64,000 nt of DNA from Clavibacter michiganensis. GTDB taxonomy: Bacteria > Actinomycetota > Actinomycetes > Actinomycetales > Microbacteriaceae. This document shows, one piece after another, positions 21,641 through 27,962 of the stretch. Location: assembly GCF_016907085.1 (NCBI RefSeq), contig NZ_JAFBBJ010000001.1:310001-374000 (forward strand), given 5' to 3'. Under the pieces are notes generated by a model that did no database searches, was not told the origin of the DNA, and saw only the letters and a program-made list of their open reading frames with translations. The number at the start of each line of letters is the position of its first letter. Positions within the stretch are counted from its first letter, which is position 1. The translations under genes and the position numbers were made by a program.

Positions 21641-21725
21641 TGGTGCGGGAGAAGGGACTTGAACCCTCACGCTCGAAAGCACAGGAACCTAAATCCTGCG
21701 TGTCTACCGATTCCACCACTCCCGC
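21641..21725 (-). tRNA. tRNA-Leu (anticodon UAG)
   Basis: On the minus strand the 7-bp acceptor stem GCGGGAG/CTCCCGC, discriminator A and an encoded CCA (21643-21641) enclose a class II tRNA with a long variable arm. The anticodon stem CAGGA/TCCTG holds the loop TTTAGGT, giving anticodon UAG for CUA and related leucine codons. Total 85 nt with CCA. It lies directly beside xylB and about 1.5 kb from the foreign NACHT gene. Confidence 0.95.
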
Positions 21726-21753: not shown

Positions 21754-21759
21754 TAATAT
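21754..21759 (+). promoter_or_regulatory. -10 box (TAATAT) before xylB
   Basis: TAATAT ends 7 nt before the GTG at 21767 and fits leaderless transcription. An ATG at 21758 in the same frame overlaps the box and is less likely to be used. Confidence 0.55.
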
Positions 21760-21766
21760 GTTGATC

Positions 21767-23191
21767 GTGACAACGAAGACACTCGTAGCAGGCATCGACT
21801 CCTCCACGCAGAGCTGCAAGGTGGTCGTCCGCGACCTCGACACGGGCGCCCTCGTGCGCTCCGGCCGCGCGTCCCACCCCGACGGCTCGGAGGTGGATCC
21901 CGCGCACTGGTGGGATGCGCTCCTCTCCGCCATCGCCGACGCGGGCGGCCTCGACGACGTGGCCGCCATCTCGGTCGGCGGCCAGCAGCACGGCATGGTC
22001 TGCCTCGACGAGTCCGGCGCGGTCGTCCGCGACGCGCTCCTCTGGAACGACACCCGATCCGCGCAGGCCGCCGCCGACCTCCGCGACGAGCTCGGCGCCG
22101 ACGCCTGGGCGAGCGCCACGGGCGTGGTCCCGGTCGCGTCCTTCACCGCCACCAAGCTCCGCTGGCTCCGCGACGCCGAGCCCGAGAACGCCGACCGCGT
22201 CGCCGCCGTCGCCCTCCCGCACGACTGGCTGACCTGGCGCCTGCTCGGCCACGGCGTCGGATCGCCGGACCTCGCCGCCCTCGCCACCGACCGCTCCGAC
22301 GCGAGCGGCACCGCGTACTGGTCGAGCGTCACGGGGGAGTACCGCCTCGACCTGCTGGAGCGCGCGCTCGGCCGCGTGGTCGGCCTGCCGCGGGTCCTCG
22401 GGCCCGGCGAGTCCGCCGGCGTCACGGGCGCCGGGATCCCCGGCGTCCCGGCCGGCATCCCCGTCGGCCCTGGCGCGGGTGACAACGCCGCGGCCGCGCT
22501 CGGGCTCGGCGCGGTGCCCGGCGACGTCGTCGTCTCCATCGGCACGTCGGGCACGGTGTTCGCCGTCACGGCGGATCCCATCACCGACGCCAGCGGCACG
22601 GTCGCCGGCTTCGCGGACGCCACGGGCAACTTCCTCCCGCTCATCGCGACCCTCAACGCCGCCCGCGTGCTCGACGGCGGCGCGCGCCTCCTCGGCGTCG
22701 ACCACGCGCGCCTGTCTGACCTCGCGCTCGAGGCCCCCGCGGGATCCGACGGCCTCGTGCTCCTGCCCTACTTCGAGGGCGAGCGCACCCCGAACCTGCC
22801 CGACGCCACCGCGTCCCTCCACGGCATGACCCTCCGCAACAGCACGCCGGCGACCATGGCCCGCGCGCACGTCGAGGGCATGCTGTGCGGCCTGGCCGAC
22901 GGCCTCGACGCGATCACGCGCCAGGGTGTCGAGGTCGAGCGCGTGCTCCTCATCGGCGGCGGGGCGAAGAGCCGCGCCGTGCGGGAGATCGCGCCCACGA
23001 TCTTCGGCGTCCCCATCCACGTGCCGGACGCGGGCGAGTTCGTCGCCGACGGCGCCGCGAAGCAGGCCGCGTGGATCCTCACGGGCTCGGTGCCTGCGTG
23101 GCCCCTCGCGGGCGACGAGGTGTTCGACGCGCCGGGCGTGCCGGCGGTGCGTGAGGCGTACGCGGCGGCGAAGGCGGAGATGAGTTACTAA
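21767..23191 (+). CDS. xylB: Xylulokinase (FGGY family)
   Basis: This 474-residue kinase phosphorylates D-xylulose to xylulose 5-phosphate for the pentose phosphate pathway. It shows [15 protein letters not shown] (phosphate 1 loop), [11 protein letters not shown] (the xylulokinase substrate motif), [18 protein letters not shown] and the adenosine motif IGGGAKS. Length is usual. No xylose isomerase or regulator is nearby in this window. The gene ends with TAA at 23191, right where base composition drops; its C-terminus ([13 protein letters not shown]) looks complete, so insertion of the next gene seems not to have damaged it. Confidence 0.95.
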
Positions 23192-26100
23192 GCCGAAAGC
23201 CTTATACATTCAGCACCATGTGTCATGCTGTACCCCATATTATTTAGGATTGATAATGGACGCGTTACTGTATGGCCTTGCTGCTTCAGCAGCGAAGGCG
23301 GTCTTTAGCCTTTGGGCCACGGGCTCCGTTAGTCCAGACATCGCAGTTGGCGCGGGCGAGGTTGTCAAAGCATCATTGCTTAAAGAAAAAGACCGACGCG
23401 CGGCGGATCGACAAATTAGTAGCATGGCGGAGCGGATTTTTGAGCAGCTAGAACCTGTCATCTCTATCGAGTATAAAAACCTTGGAGAAGCCGAGGCGTC
23501 TGTAGTAATGGAGGCGGTGCAAAAAGCCGTAAGCATATCGACCGATACTGCTCGAACTGTTATTGAGCATGACTTCGACTCACTACGCCTGGAAGCTGCC
23601 ATAAAACCAAAAGATGCTGAACTATCTGCGCTTGGTCTTTCAGAGGAGGCCGAGCACTTACTTGAACTTCTCCTCGCTGAGTGCTGTGACTACATCACTG
23701 AGATAGCTGCCCGGCTACCACAGTTCGAGACCGAGGCCGCGCGCGAGATACTTCGCCGCGAAACGTCCTTGATGGAAATGGCTCAGGCGACCTTTATAGC
23801 GCTACCGCGTTCTCGTGTACCTCGTTCTTTCGGGGCTGGGGACGATCACGAGCGCTTTGAGACTCGCTACGTCCGCGCAGTAGCCACGTATGCGGAAAAG
23901 CTTGAGTTATTCGGAGTGACGTCAGTGACGGCGCGACGACCCTATGATCTTTCTGTTGCATACATTTCATTAAGTATTGCAGTGCAGGGCGACGAGAAGA
24001 CAAGCGGCAGTGGCGACGCGCCAGATGAGCAAGAGGGTGCTGTCAGCCGAGCCGACGCGTACTTCAGCGAGCATTCACGTGTGCTTCTTACCGGAGACGC
24101 TGGTTCCGGAAAAACGACTCTGCTCAGATGGCTTGCAGGTCTTTCAGCAAGAGACTCGCCGATAGCGGACAAAGCGGGTAGCTGGCGTCAGCGAGTTCCA
24201 TTTATTATTCCGCTTCGACAATTTGCTGATGATGCGCTACCGACTCCTGGGCTTTTCGTAAACCTGATTAAGCCTAACCTCGCAGAAGCGACGCCGCCTG
24301 GATGGGCGCATCAGATTCTCGAGGAAGGTCGAGGTGCGCTACTAGTCGATGGGCTCGACGAGGTGCCTGTGGCACGTCGAAAGGAAGTCCTGGACTGGAT
24401 AGTAGAGCTTGACTCGGATTTTCCAGGGAACTCAATCCTTGTTACCTCCCGTGGTGCTGCGTTAACTAAAGAATGGAAGCAGTCCGAACTTCTTGAGCGC
24501 GCAACTCTTCAACCCATGACGCCGTCTGATATCCAATCATTCGTTAATCACTGGCATGATGCCATGAGGCGGAGTGCGCTTGCGGATGAACGTCAACAGG
24601 TTTCAGACGCTCATGTAGGCATGCTTAATGTGATTAAAACGCGACCTAATATCCAGGCGCTTAGTAAGACGCCGCTTTTGTGTGCCTTGATGTGCGCTTT
24701 GCATCTTGAAAATGCATCCAGTCTGCCATCGGATAAAATGAGCCTGTATAGGACTGCTATCGAGATGCTGGTGATGAAGCGCGATAACGATCGTCGCCTC
24801 GCGCGGTCGGATACGCAATTGAACTTGTCCGACCGCCTTGTATTACTTCAAAGGTTGGCTATTTGGATGCATGAAAACGGTCTTGCAGATGCGTCTCATG
24901 GCGAGTACCAGGCGGCGATCGAGCGGTCGCTTGTAGCCCTGAATAGGCCCTCGGCAGAGGCGGCTGAAACGGCAGCGTTCCTGCTTGAGCGCTGCGGCAT
25001 CTTACGTGAGCCGACCCCCGGTCGTGTTGATTTCATTCATCGGTCGTTCCTCGAATACCTAGCTGCTGCGGCAGAAGTTGAAGACGATTCAATTTCGAAG
25101 TTGCTCCTTCATGCGACAGAGGAGCCGTGGCGAGAAGTTATAGTCATGGCTGCGGGTCACGCGAACAATGCGCAACGCCGGCACCTCATTGAAGGGTTAT
25201 TGGCACGCGGGGCAGCGGAGCCGGGTAACATGCATCAGCTCTACCTTATTGCCGTAGCCACTCTGCAAACCGTTCGCGCCTTGGACCCTGATCTACGAGA
25301 TTCTCTGCAAGTCGCTCTCAACGCAGTTCTACCCCCGGCCAACATGACTGAAGCATCGGCTGTCGCCTCCGCCGGTTCTTCAGCTGCCCCGTTACTTCGA
25401 CGTCGGGCTGATCTCAAGGTGCTTGAGGCTGTAGCGAGCGTCCGCGCGCTGTCATTGATTGGTGGGCCTGAGGCATTCGAGGCGTTGAGGACCTACAGGC
25501 GGGAAGCCCGAATCACTGTGATTCGGCAACTCCTACGAGCGTGGACAGCATTCGATACCAAGGAATACGCATCCGAAATTTTAGCTGGCTCACGTTTCAT
25601 TCGAGGTTCGTTCACTGTTACGGAGCCTGAGCACATCCCGTACTTAGCCAAGTTTGAGCGCCTCGAGAATATTAACATTGACATTTCCGAGCGCATGTCA
25701 AATTGGAATGATTTAAGTGCTCTAGAAGGGGACGAGCGCGTTGAGACGCTTTCCTTGAGTAACTTGCGCTGGGCGGTGAACCTCGTCGGGGTGCCTGTAC
25801 TGCCCGCATTAAGCTCCCTTACTCTCAGTAATTTTGATAATCTTGTGTCTGTCAGCGGAATCGAGAACTTTCCGGCATTAAGGCGATTCGAAATTCACGG
25901 CGCACGCTCGCTCGATGATCTAGGCGCGCTAGCAAGTCTCCGGGGCCTAGAGAGGCTAGTACTAAGCGTTGCCGGTTCTGCCAACCTAGAGTTCCTCGCG
26001 CGTATGGCAGTGCCGATCTCGCAGGTCTGGGTATATTCAGCTCGCTCGGCGATCGTGACTGTAGGGGGAATGAAGGTCAAGTCGCTTAATATCGTTCGAT

Positions 26101-26658
26101 GGGCTTGGAGGGCCGAGGAGCAGGCGATGGATCTTGACGGGCTCGCGTCTTCCCCGGACATAACGTCTTTGCGTCTAGATTGTTTCAATCTGCCAGACGT
26201 AGTCGAACTACCGCCACATTTAGAGTCGCTTCATCTTCAGCGCGGGGCGGCGACGTTTACGGGCGGTGATGCTTTGACAAGGCTAAGTGTGTATGAGTAT
26301 CCGTCCGCCGAGATATACGCGCTTGTGGAGCGGGCACCGCGACTGGCTAGAATTTCGATTTCATCGAGTGTGACGCATTCAAGCGTGATGGATATACTCT
26401 CGCAGATGCCAGTGCGAGCTAATCTCGAAATAGAGTTTCACGACTATCATGAAGTGGATGCATTCGATGAGGAGCCGGTCGAAAATGTGCTTTATGCGGC
26501 CGCTGTCACGCATAAATCGGTGATATACACGGGTTTGGGATAATTGCAGCGGCCTTGGACTGTCCGCGCGTTGGCCCTGCCGACGTGCGCACCTGATTGA
26601 GTGTCAGGCAGAAGGGTCGGCGTCGGGACCCCGTAAACCTGGACCTATTCTTCGGCAC
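23192..26658. other. Low-G+C foreign segment holding one NACHT-LRR gene
   Basis: Composition falls from above 70 % G+C to roughly half, with A- and T-ending codons (GTT, TTA, AAA, ATT) that neighbours avoid. The segment sits cleanly between convergent xylB and an MFS gene. No integrase, transposase, terminal inverted repeat or convincing flanking direct repeat is visible. It therefore looks like a single-gene defence cargo rather than a mobile element. Exact ends are uncertain; 26544-26658 holds no gene. Confidence 0.8.
23256..26543 (+). CDS. NACHT-domain STAND ATPase with C-terminal leucine-rich repeats (bacterial NLR-like, putative antiphage)
   Basis: This 1095-residue protein has three parts. 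Residues about 1-215 match the NACHT N-terminal helical domain type known from streptomycete NACHT proteins (LLLAECCDYITEIAARLPQF; LRRETSLMEM; KLELFGV). The NACHT ATPase follows with Walker A GDAGSGKTT at 280-288 and Walker B ALLVDGLDEVP at 361-371, including the characteristic GLDE. After a helical region comes a leucine-rich-repeat array from about 800 to 1060 (LRRFEIHGARSLDDL; LASLRGLERLVLSV). Related bacterial NACHT proteins protect against phage: the repeats probably sense and the N-terminus signals or kills. I chose the ATG at 23256 for the AGGA 6 nt upstream; the frame opens at 23220. Codon use is foreign. No partner gene is adjacent. Confidence 0.88.
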   Translation: MDALLYGLAASAAKAVFSLWATGSVSPDIAVGAGEVVKASLLKEKDRRAADRQISSMAERIFEQLEPVISIEYKNLGEAEASVVMEAVQKAVSISTDTARTVIEHDFDSLRLEAAIKPKDAELSALGLSEEAEHLLELLLAECCDYITEIAARLPQFETEAAREILRRETSLMEMAQATFIALPRSRVPRSFGAGDDHERFETRYVRAVATYAEKLELFGVTSVTARRPYDLSVAYISLSIAVQGDEKTSGSGDAPDEQEGAVSRADAYFSEHSRVLLTGDAGSGKTTLLRWLAGLSARDSPIADKAGSWRQRVPFIIPLRQFADDALPTPGLFVNLIKPNLAEATPPGWAHQILEEGRGALLVDGLDEVPVARRKEVLDWIVELDSDFPGNSILVTSRGAALTKEWKQSELLERATLQPMTPSDIQSFVNHWHDAMRRSALADERQQVSDAHVGMLNVIKTRPNIQALSKTPLLCALMCALHLENASSLPSDKMSLYRTAIEMLVMKRDNDRRLARSDTQLNLSDRLVLLQRLAIWMHENGLADASHGEYQAAIERSLVALNRPSAEAAETAAFLLERCGILREPTPGRVDFIHRSFLEYLAAAAEVEDDSISKLLLHATEEPWREVIVMAAGHANNAQRRHLIEGLLARGAAEPGNMHQLYLIAVATLQTVRALDPDLRDSLQVALNAVLPPANMTEASAVASAGSSAAPLLRRRADLKVLEAVASVRALSLIGGPEAFEALRTYRREARITVIRQLLRAWTAFDTKEYASEILAGSRFIRGSFTVTEPEHIPYLAKFERLENINIDISERMSNWNDLSALEGDERVETLSLSNLRWAVNLVGVPVLPALSSLTLSNFDNLVSVSGIENFPALRRFEIHGARSLDDLGALASLRGLERLVLSVAGSANLEFLARMAVPISQVWVYSARSAIVTVGGMKVKSLNIVRWAWRAEEQAMDLDGLASSPDITSLRLDCFNLPDVVELPPHLESLHLQRGAATFTGGDALTRLSVYEYPSAEIYALVERAPRLARISISSSVTHSSVMDILSQMPVRANLEIEFHDYHEVDAFDEEPVENVLYAAAVTHKSVIYTGLG

Positions 26659-27954
26659 TTACCCGTGTTGTCGCGGCACGTACCGCGGCACGTACCGCAC
26701 GAGGATCCCCGCGCCGATGAGCCCGAGCACGCCCATCACGCCGCTGGCGACGGCGAGCGACGCGGCGGAGGTGAGCGCCGCGATGAGGAGCGGGGACGCG
26801 GCGCTGCCGGCGTCGCCCGTGAAGCGCCAGGCGCCGAGGAAGGGGGCCGGGTCCTCGCGGGGGGCGAGGTCGGCGCCGAGGGTCATGAGGATCCCCGAGC
26901 CGACGCCGTTCGCGACCGACATGAACATGGCCACGCCGATGAACCACTGCACGCTCGTCGGCAGGTCGGGCGTGAGCGCGAGCACGAGGTAGCCGAGGCC
27001 GAGCCCGACCATCGACGGCACGGCGCTCCAGAGCCGGCCGAAGCGGTCCATGATCTGGCCGCTCGCGTAGAAGAGGGCGAAGTCCACGCCGCCCGCTATG
27101 CCGATGATGAGCGCCGTGTTCGCGTCCGAGATGCCGATGCTCACGGCCCACAGGGGGAGGAGCACGCCGCGGCCCGCGCGCATCGCGCCGATGAGGGCCG
27201 CGCCGGATCCGAGCTTCACGAGCACGCCCTTGAACCGCCACAGGGTCCGGCCGAGGCCCGCCGACTCGCGCGCCGGGGGAGCGGTGCCCGCAGCCGCCGC
27301 GACGGACTCGTCGTCCTGCGGCTCGCCCGCGGTGGCGGCCGCGGCGCTCTGCAGGTCCGCGCGGTTGCGGCGCACGACGTCCATGGGATCCGGCAGCACT
27401 AGCAGCGTCACGGCAGCCGCGAGGCACGCCACGATGTGGATCGCGAACGCTGACTGCGACGCGCCGGTCAGGTGGATCACGCCTGCGGCTAGGAACGGCC
27501 CCACGAAGTACCCGGCGCGGAACGTGCCGCCGAGCGTCGACAGCGCGCGGGCCCGGTACGCCTGCGGCACGAAGCTCGTCATGAACGCGTGCCGCGCGAG
27601 CGCGAAGACGGCCGTCGAGACGCCGATGAGGAAGACGCCGATGCCGAGCACGAGCGGGTTCGGCGCGAGGAGGCACAGCACCAGGCCGCCGATGGAGACG
27701 AAGGCCGCGCCGATCATGGCGGTCCGCTCGCCGATGCGGCTCACCACGGATCCGCTCGGGATGTCACCCACGAGCTCGCCGAGCATGATCATGCCGCCGA
27801 TGAAGGCGGCGATCGCGAGCGAGGCGCCGAGGCTGCCCGCGACGATCGGGATGATGGGGATGATCGCCCCCTCGCCGATGGAGAAGAGGAGCGCGGGGAG
27901 CAGCGCCGGGAGCGCCACCGCGCGGAGGGAGAAGGGGGCATCCGGGGTCGACAT
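26659..27954 (-). CDS. MFS transporter, 12 membrane segments
   Basis: This 431-residue protein has the two six-helix halves of the major facilitator superfamily, with a central cytoplasmic loop (about residues 195-235, rich in Ala and Glu). Motif A-like residues after helix 2 are weak ([13 protein letters not shown]). It resembles drug- or metabolite-efflux MFS proteins; the substrate is unknown. The ATG at 27954 is supported by a TAGGCT box 8 nt upstream. Its 3' end is next to the foreign NACHT segment. A 12-bp direct repeat near its end (26672-26695) duplicates Arg-Tyr-Val-Pro. Confidence 0.85.
26672..26695 (-). repeat. 12-bp tandem duplication at the MFS gene 3' end
   Basis: CGCGGCACGTAC occurs twice in tandem and encodes a repeated Tyr-Val-Pro-Arg near the C-terminus of the MFS protein, close to the edge of the foreign segment. 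Confidence 0.8.
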
Positions 27955-27962
27955 CGCCCCCG

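What the first reader, a model, noticed from the sequence alone, without database searches (positions are those of the whole stretch)
23192..26658. Lone NACHT-LRR gene of foreign composition between xylB and an MFS gene
The sequence shows one 1095-residue protein with Walker A GDAGSGKTT, a GLDE-type Walker B, an N-terminal helical domain of the NACHT-associated kind and C-terminal leucine-rich repeats, at about half G+C in a window otherwise above 70 %. Bacterial NACHT proteins are established antiphage proteins related to animal NLR receptors. A leucine-rich-repeat sensor on a bacterial NACHT protein in a plant-associated actinobacterium is of special interest. No effector gene, integrase or repeat is beside it, so the N-terminus may itself be the effector.
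Basis: partly seen in the sequence, partly recalled or inferred. Interest (0 to 1): 0.9.

Follow-up and report, generated by a model that had tools for sequence, protein, structure and literature searches.

The report
Bacterial immune receptor replacing pilus genes
This bacterium carries one foreign gene for an immune-receptor-like protein laid out like animal NLRs, probably an anti-virus defence, and it stands exactly where the related species examined keep a set of pilus genes.

Summary
Window 23256-26540 (+) is an intact 1095-residue NNH1-NACHT-LRR protein (Pfam NNH1 2.9e-26, NACHT 3.3e-19). Gene G+C is 54% against 72% in its flanks. The LRRs miss Pfam's cut-offs in this protein but are clear in the family profile and the predicted model. 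The model's best solved matches are animal NLRs: NLRC4, NLRP3 and NOD2. NACHT-LRR proteins in bacteria are already in print (PMC12169576, introduction), so this is a new member of a known kind.

The "lone insertion" reading needs correcting. Of 18 genomes of the genus only the window's own has the gene. In 16 of the 17 others the xylB-MFS interval is not empty but holds a 4.7 kb Tad/Flp pilus locus; in the 17th that locus is broken by two mobile elements. The NACHT gene stands in place of this second tad locus; the window strain keeps one. In Micrococcus luteus two tad loci are both needed for DNA uptake (PMC4322843, passages).

Most likely an antiphage NLR that oligomerises on sensing infection and kills or arrests the cell. 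NNH1 has no solved-fold match. Function is inferred, not shown.

The parts
23256..26543 (+). NNH1-NACHT-LRR gene, 1095 aa plus stop
23274..23777 (+). NNH1 N-terminal helical domain (residues 7-174); helix 1 (residues 2-24) is the most hydrophobic of the helices measured, on family average and here
24078..24560 (+). NACHT NTPase domain (residues 275-435)
   Evidence: also matched in sequence to NLRC4 and NOD2 by the family profile
24093..24119 (+). Walker A, GDAGSGKTT (residues 280-288)
   Evidence: conserved
24336..24362 (+). Walker B region, ALLVDGLDE (residues 361-369)
   Evidence: conserved
25029..25067 (+). Candidate winged-helix histidine motif DFIHRSFLEYLAA (residues 592-604); the family profile aligns this place to a like motif of NLRC4, in order after the NACHT match but as a segment of 1.7 bits that is not significant alone
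   Evidence: conserved in the family
25656..26450 (+). Leucine-rich repeats, about residues 801-1065
23180..26671 (.). Segment of this strain that stands in place of the 4.7 kb tad-2 locus of congeners; edges lie in the last codons of xylB and of the MFS gene (approximate)
21758..23191 (+). Left flank: FGGY sugar kinase (xylB), 92-95% identical in DNA and in place in the 17 congeners
26659..27957 (-). Right flank: MFS transporter, 91-95% identical in DNA and in place in the 17 congeners; its last few codons differ from theirs

Best explanation
The gene encodes a single-protein bacterial NLR. The LRR tail senses a sign of infection, or holds the protein shut until one appears. The NACHT core then exchanges ADP for ATP and assembles a ring, as animal NLRs do. 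The clustered N-terminal NNH1 helical bundles kill or arrest the infected cell without an enzyme, most likely by disturbing the membrane or by recruiting a host factor. The gene came by horizontal transfer from an unknown, lower-G+C source and took the place of one of the strain's two tad/Flp pilus loci. Shown: domain make-up, foreign composition, presence in place of tad-2, wide family of patchy distribution. Inferred: horizontal transfer as the cause, ATP switch, ring assembly, antiphage role, non-enzymatic effector.
For: NNH1 and NACHT profile matches. Conserved Walker A/B. The family NACHT profile hits NLRC4 at 2.9e-9 and NOD2 (5irl/5irm) at 1.5e-7. AlphaFold2 model (pLDDT 82, pTM 0.71) best matched by NLRC4, NLRP3 and NOD2, top E 1.4e-17; TM-scores for the whole query are low (0.18-0.36 in the 50 rows listed). 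LRRs. Patchy distribution: own genome only of 18 in the genus; NNH1 in 2 of 299 family genomes. The nine-row tree set that holds it spans several phyla, and its eight other members are lower in G+C than their flanks (mean -0.104; -0.026 for 13 rph-linked and -0.019 for 55 others). Context of two relatives fits defence cargo: L171 lies beside a gpA replication gene of a viral contig, and P2-like phages carry a defence hotspot between gpA and gpQ (PMC9122126, passages); the family relative in G1007 lies in a lower-G+C stretch with an AriA/PtuA-like ATPase and a D12 DNA methyltransferase. Bacterial NACHT proteins defend against phages (PMC12169576, passages and introduction).
Against: No member of this NNH1-NACHT-LRR family was seen with a tested function in my searches, and a survey of actinobacterial defence has neither 'NACHT' nor 'NLR' as a word start in its main text (PMC10482375). 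PADLOC has only short P-loop matches. The gene is not in a defence island: the neighbours read by eye are housekeeping genes. In 14 of 80 genome loci a relative sits beside rdgB-rph in Pseudonocardiaceae, which looks resident rather than mobile and could mean another role there. NNH1 has no significant fold match in PDB or BFVD (0 of 74 and 0 of 89 matches at E<=0.001), so the effector mode is a guess. The profile search that finds NLRC4 also lists midasin at 3.3e-8 (no stretch passing on its own), so its E-values should not be overread.
Confidence: 0.74

Rival explanations
1. What was selected was the loss of the tad-2 pilus locus (a phage receptor or DNA-uptake machine), and the NACHT gene is merely the foreign DNA that happened to fill the gap.
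For: In the only other congener with a disturbed locus, G001, it is broken by an integrase/tape-measure element in tadA and a serine-recombinase element near the 3' end of tadC. Tad pili serve phage adsorption in Caulobacter (PMC11067988, abstract). Both tad loci are needed for transformation in M. luteus (PMC4322843, passages). Mobile elements disrupt competence genes in many species (PMC4774983, passages).
Against: The reading frame is intact with the conserved motifs, so it is probably kept for its own sake. Only 2 of 18 genomes show a disturbed tad-2, too few for a test. It is not known that Flp pili serve uptake or phage entry in this genus.
Confidence: 0.2
2. A STAND regulator of transcription or metabolism (MalT-like) rather than an immune receptor, perhaps tied to the neighbouring sugar kinase.
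For: STAND ATPases include regulators such as MalT (mentioned in PMC13236601 passages). Two plasmid relatives have what looks by eye like a helix-turn-helix N-terminus (L070, L074).
Against: This protein has NNH1, not a DNA-binding domain. It is absent from 17 congeners that all keep xylB. No metabolic neighbour shared widely by relatives was seen.
Confidence: 0.06
3. A defence or conflict protein that acts on something other than phages, for example plasmids, gene-transfer particles or rival bacteria.
For: An NLR-like system in Caulobacter controls lysis for gene transfer agents (PMC13236601, abstract start and passages). Most of the 80 relatives kept are from actinobacteria, Streptomyces and Amycolatopsis among them.
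Against: One relative is carried beside gpA on a viral contig, next to where P2-like phages carry anti-phage systems; tested bacterial NACHT proteins protect against phage.
Confidence: 0.15
4. A recently arrived gene with no function in this host, on its way to being lost.
For: Composition not yet ameliorated (GC3 0.526); found in one genome of 18.
Against: Full-length open frame at about 30% identity to relatives with the conserved motifs present.
Confidence: 0.08

Closest known systems
Bacterial NLRs / bNACHT proteins (Kibby et al. 2023, not held; as described in PMC12169576, passages and introduction read)
   Same: Tripartite single protein: N-terminal effector, NACHT switch, C-terminal sensor; LRR-bearing forms are stated to exist in bacteria.
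   Different: The tested proteins described in the passages read carry an N-terminal nuclease, or a short C-terminal domain without a discernible effector, not NNH1 with LRRs. Clade membership was not tested.
Pfam NNH1 (PF22733) plus NACHT (PF05729) proteins of Streptomyces, Amycolatopsis and relatives
   Same: Same domain order; NNH1 in 45 of 46 and NACHT in 45 of 46 aligned members (the miss fits L123, a wrong reading frame).
   Different: Best identity 38% in the best segment and 35% over 990 columns; this protein is on a long branch in a multi-phylum, low-G+C subset.
Animal NLRs (NLRC4, NLRP3, NOD2)
   Same: NACHT, helical and LRR order and fold; NACHT core matched by profile, a winged-helix histidine motif only weakly.
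   Different: No CARD or pyrin domain by Pfam; N-terminal bundle has no significant fold match; in sequence the family's LRRs are nearest to bacterial Roco and internalin LRRs.
M. luteus tad-1/tad-2 Flp pilus loci (PMC4322843, passages)
   Same: Congeners have two places with a TadA-type ATPase; the one between xylB and MFS has the order tadA-tadB-tadC-tadE-tadG, read in L053.
   Different: In the window strain that locus is gone and the NACHT gene stands there. Uptake was shown in M. luteus, not in this genus; the other locus's gene order was not read.

Membership tests
Bacterial NLR (NACHT plus LRR) | NACHT domain with Walker A and B | tested here: met
   Pfam NACHT 3.3e-19 above cut-off; motifs conserved
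Bacterial NLR (NACHT plus LRR) | Leucine-rich repeats at the C-terminus | tested here: met
   Not by Pfam in this protein alone; met by family profile, predicted structure and repeat count
Bacterial NLR (NACHT plus LRR) | N-terminal effector domain | tested here: inconclusive
   NNH1 domain present but no catalytic-looking conserved set and no fold match
Bacterial NLR (NACHT plus LRR) | Protection against phage | not testable with these tools
   needs an experiment
bNACHT clades of Kibby et al. | Placement in a numbered clade of the NACHT tree | not tested
   paper not held
PADLOC-listed defence systems | Match to a model along its length | tested here: not met
   only short P-loop matches
CARD-NLR systems | Partner peptidase genes beside the NLR | tested here: not met
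   the two flanking genes are an FGGY kinase and an MFS transporter; genes further off were read only by eye
Core gene of the genus | Present in all congeners | tested here: not met
   only the own genome of 18
Animal inflammasome NLR | CARD, pyrin or BIR domain at the N-terminus | tested here: not met
   Pfam shows NNH1 instead

The most novel reading that the evidence does not exclude
The second tad/Flp locus of this genus is a conflict locus: a DNA-uptake and phage-entry pilus that incoming DNA repeatedly knocks out or replaces, here by an NLR. The NLR arrives with its own insurance, since its arrival removes the machine by which it could be cured by transformation, and the cell trades uptake for immunity. 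The receptor itself acts as a bacterial resistosome, its NNH1 first helices assembling into a membrane pore.
Probability: 0.12. Interest if true: 0.78.

Novelty: new member of a known kind. Interest (0 to 1): 0.5.

Why it matters
LRR-bearing bacterial NLRs share their layout with animal inflammasome receptors, yet my searches turned up no tested member of the NNH1 type. This one is compact, alone and intact. Its predicted model is matched best by NLRC4, NLRP3 and NOD2, so it is a fair subject for asking what LRRs sense in bacteria and how a non-enzymatic N-terminus kills. Its place, on top of one of two pilus loci that in another actinobacterium serve DNA uptake, makes a link between immunity, phage receptors and competence directly testable.

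Tried and rejected
Empty-site idea: rejected, since none of the 17 congeners has an empty xylB-MFS junction; 16 have a tad locus of 4.72-4.81 kb and the 17th a broken one. G004 is a 620-contig assembly, but its tad-2 interval is held on one contig.

Synteny with rdgB-rph: 14 of 80 genome loci have a relative beside rdgB-rph, and the window gene lies about 4.5 kb from its own rdgB. The tree puts those relatives in other branches and gene orientation differs, so I treat the closeness as coincidence.

Conserved partner or effector gene: ORFs around 81 relatives were clustered; of the 14 largest clusters shown, none reached more than 14 loci, and those I could name (RNase PH, RdgB, glutamate racemase, by eye or) belong to the rdgB-rph group. 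Spurious ORFs of high-G+C DNA limit this test.

Tad loci near relatives: tblastn of four tad proteins against the loci of 81 relatives, G1007 and the strain's own tad-1; the only match was the strain's own tad-1. So standing in place of tad is not a general habit of the family, as far as the fetched flanks (at most 10 kb, often less) show.

Enzymatic N-terminus: no catalytic-looking invariant set in 62 sequences; no fold match. Helix 1 is the most hydrophobic helix measured but only mildly amphipathic (mean z 1.1 against shuffles, below helices 44-72, 130-153 and 155-182), so the pore idea is weakly supported.

Promoter and terminator scans found no more than shuffles give. Phage records: no match.

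Errors of mine found on checking: the reading frame picked for 5 of 81 relatives (L123, L148, L161, L163, L169) was wrong. L123 was one of 63 rows in the structure and PDB-profile alignment A2 and one of 46 in A3; none was in A4 or A5. The G+C comparison and the tree were redone without the five, with the same outcome. In one search TadB was first given in a wrong frame; it was repeated correctly. The xylB codon numbers were out of frame and are not used.
Full report
What is there. Window 23256-26540 (+) is one open frame of 1095 codons. Pfam gives NNH1 at residues 7-174 (2.9e-26) and NACHT at 275-435 (3.3e-19), both above the curated cut-offs. PADLOC gives short P-loop matches only; NCBIfam gives weak matches around the P-loop, far below its cut-offs. 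The gene is 53.8% G+C in flanks of 72.1%, with GC3 0.526 against 0.984 in rph and 0.994 in a prfB-like gene (names by eye). So it is foreign in composition.

The C-terminal repeats. In this protein alone no LRR model passes (best 0.07), and a direct sequence search of the PDB gives internalin B at only 0.024. The family settles it. A profile of 63 sequences matches LRR proteins of known structure (Roco protein 5il7 at 1.4e-85 over profile positions 804-1065, internalins), and 14 of 46 members carry Pfam LRR_4. In the AlphaFold2 model (pLDDT 82, pTM 0.71) strands start at 831, 854, 877, 900, 921, 946, 971 and 991. LxxLxL matches in 791-1065 number 17 against a shuffle mean of 9.5 (p 0.009). One of the 63 and 46 rows, L123, was a wrong reading frame.

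Likeness to animal NLRs. Foldseek of the whole model ranks NLRC4, NLRP3 and NOD2 first (E 1.4e-17, 1.1e-16, 2.3e-16); the plant receptor NRC3 comes at 5.3e-9. TM-scores for the whole query are low (0.18-0.36 in the rows listed), so this is likeness of layout and of parts, not a superposable whole. A profile of the NACHT and helical part of 32 members hits NLRC4 (2.9e-9) and NOD2 (1.5e-7) by sequence; midasin is also listed at 3.3e-8, with no stretch passing on its own. After the NACHT match the same profile aligns this protein's DFIHRSFLEYLAA place to a like F-H-K-S-F-Q-E-Y motif of NLRC4, but that segment scores 1.7 bits and is not significant alone. That such a histidine touches bound ADP in NLRC4 is recalled.

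The N-terminal domain. Predicted alone with 62 sequences it is all-helical (pLDDT 81, pTM 0.67) with no significant match in the PDB (0 of 74 matches at E<=0.001) or among viral models (0 of 89). Conserved at 90% or more in the stretch are F157, E164, L166, F201, Y205, L232, A235, Y236 and L239: one charged residue, no catalytic set. Helix 1 has the highest mean hydrophobicity of the helices measured, but is only mildly amphipathic. I infer a non-enzymatic effector; pore and recruitment cannot be told apart.

Family and spread. At E<=0.001, 19 of 396 genomes of the order and 14 of 396 of the phylum match, though only 7 and 8 of these, the own genome included, reach below 1e-10. Plasmids: 111 of 72,556 records at E<=1e-5, none covering 80% of the query; phage records: none. 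Viral contigs: one locus, L171. In FastTree trees of 94 rows, and of 89 after wrong frames were taken out, the protein lies on a long branch in a nine-row set with Thermomicrobia, Chloroflexota, KSB1, an alphaproteobacterial MAG, Micromonospora, Kineosporia and L171 (local support 98 and 99%). A long branch makes its exact place unsure. The eight other rows of that set are all lower in G+C than their surroundings (mean -0.104, against -0.026 for 13 rph-linked and -0.019 for 55 other loci; Mann-Whitney p 1.0e-5). The set was chosen after seeing the tree, so that p-value is only descriptive. No near donor was found.

What it stands in place of. All 18 genomes of the genus have the xylB and MFS flanks, the 17 others at 91-95% identity, but only the window strain has the NACHT gene. 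From the coordinates, 16 of the 17 others have 4.72-4.81 kb between the flank matches, and G001 has 32 kb. In L053 that stretch is a Tad/Flp locus: TadA-type ATPase (PF00437), two T2SSF proteins (TadB, TadC), TadE (PF07811) and a TadE/G-like protein (PF13400). Of the other 16 loci, 15 align to it in one or two pieces (four of them break near its 3' end; G004's contig starts inside xylB) and G001 in three. By profile, each of the 17 congeners has at least two TadA-type ATPases over the cut-off (G011 three) and the window strain one. TadE gives at least two in 16 of 17, with G004 showing one, and one in the window strain. The window strain keeps the locus near 3.22 Mb and lacks tad-2. The edges lie in the last codons of xylB and of the MFS gene, whose last residues differ from those of congeners. 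None of the repeat pairs that one search lists around the gene has both arms at the edges; the longest inverted pair (22 nt, 82%) lies in xylB and MFS and may be chance.

The same locus elsewhere. In G001 tadA is split by a 15.1 kb element with a tyrosine integrase and a phage tail tape measure protein, and tadC, near its 3' end, by a 12.2 kb element with a serine recombinase and a C5 methylase. So 2 of 18 genomes have a tad-2 disturbed by foreign DNA. In M. luteus two tad loci of like gene order are both needed for Flp pili and for natural transformation (PMC4322843, passages). Tad pili serve phage adsorption in Caulobacter (PMC11067988, abstract). Mobile elements that break competence genes are a known pattern (PMC4774983, passages). 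A ComEC-type protein is present in 18 of 18 including the window strain, but the same profile also rings in 10 of 14 control genomes, so this says little. Two disturbed genomes are too few to claim selection, and the pilus's role in this genus is not known.

Context of relatives. L171's gene lies directly beside a gpA replication gene (PF05840 4.1e-90; phrog_91) on a viral contig; I call it P2-like from gpA alone. P2-like phages carry a defence hotspot between gpA and gpQ (PMC9122126, passages); gpQ was not identified in L171. The other NNH1 bearer of the family sample, G1007, has its relative (30% identity) in a stretch of 55-63% G+C beside an AriA/PtuA-like ATPase and a D12 methyltransferase. 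Against a purely mobile life, 14 of 80 genome loci have the relative beside rdgB-rph.

Judgement. A real, intact bacterial NLR, horizontally acquired by every sign, of a kind already in print (PMC12169576, introduction; searches turned up no tested NNH1-NACHT-LRR member). What is new is its standing in place of the second tad locus and an N-terminal fold without a match. Antiphage function is likely but untested.

Noticed in passing
L061 1256-16333 and L061 19046 to L062 11367 (genome G001): Two separate mobile elements, one integrase/tape-measure type and one serine-recombinase type, interrupt tadA and the 3' part of tadC of the same tad-2 locus that the window strain lacks.
   Followed up: partly
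L126, L119, L131, L146, L148, L149, L138, L145, L159, L093, L132, L151, L125, L164: In 14 of 80 genome loci (all Pseudonocardiaceae) a relative lies beside convergent rdgB-rph, 9 bp to 2.0 kb away in 13 (the distance for L148 is unreliable), as if resident for a long time.
   Followed up: partly
L171 4989-7817: An NNH1-NACHT protein with GC3 0.39 directly beside the gpA gene of a viral contig.
   Followed up: partly
L174 7566-16216 (genome G1007): The only other NNH1 gene among 299 genomes of the family lies in a lower-G+C stretch with an AriA/PtuA-like ATPase, a following ORF that looks AriB-like by eye (no profile match), and a D12 DNA methyltransferase.
   Followed up: partly
L070, L074, L079: Some relatives seem by eye to carry a helix-turn-helix (L070, L074) or trypsin-like (L079) N-terminus in place of NNH1, suggesting swapping of output domains; no profile was run on them.
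   Followed up: no
window 26659-26680: The last few codons of the MFS gene differ from congeners, because the foreign segment ends inside the gene.
   Followed up: partly
window 21641-21725: A tRNA-Leu gene lies 1.5 kb upstream of the NACHT gene, on the other side of xylB; it does not border the foreign segment.
   Followed up: no
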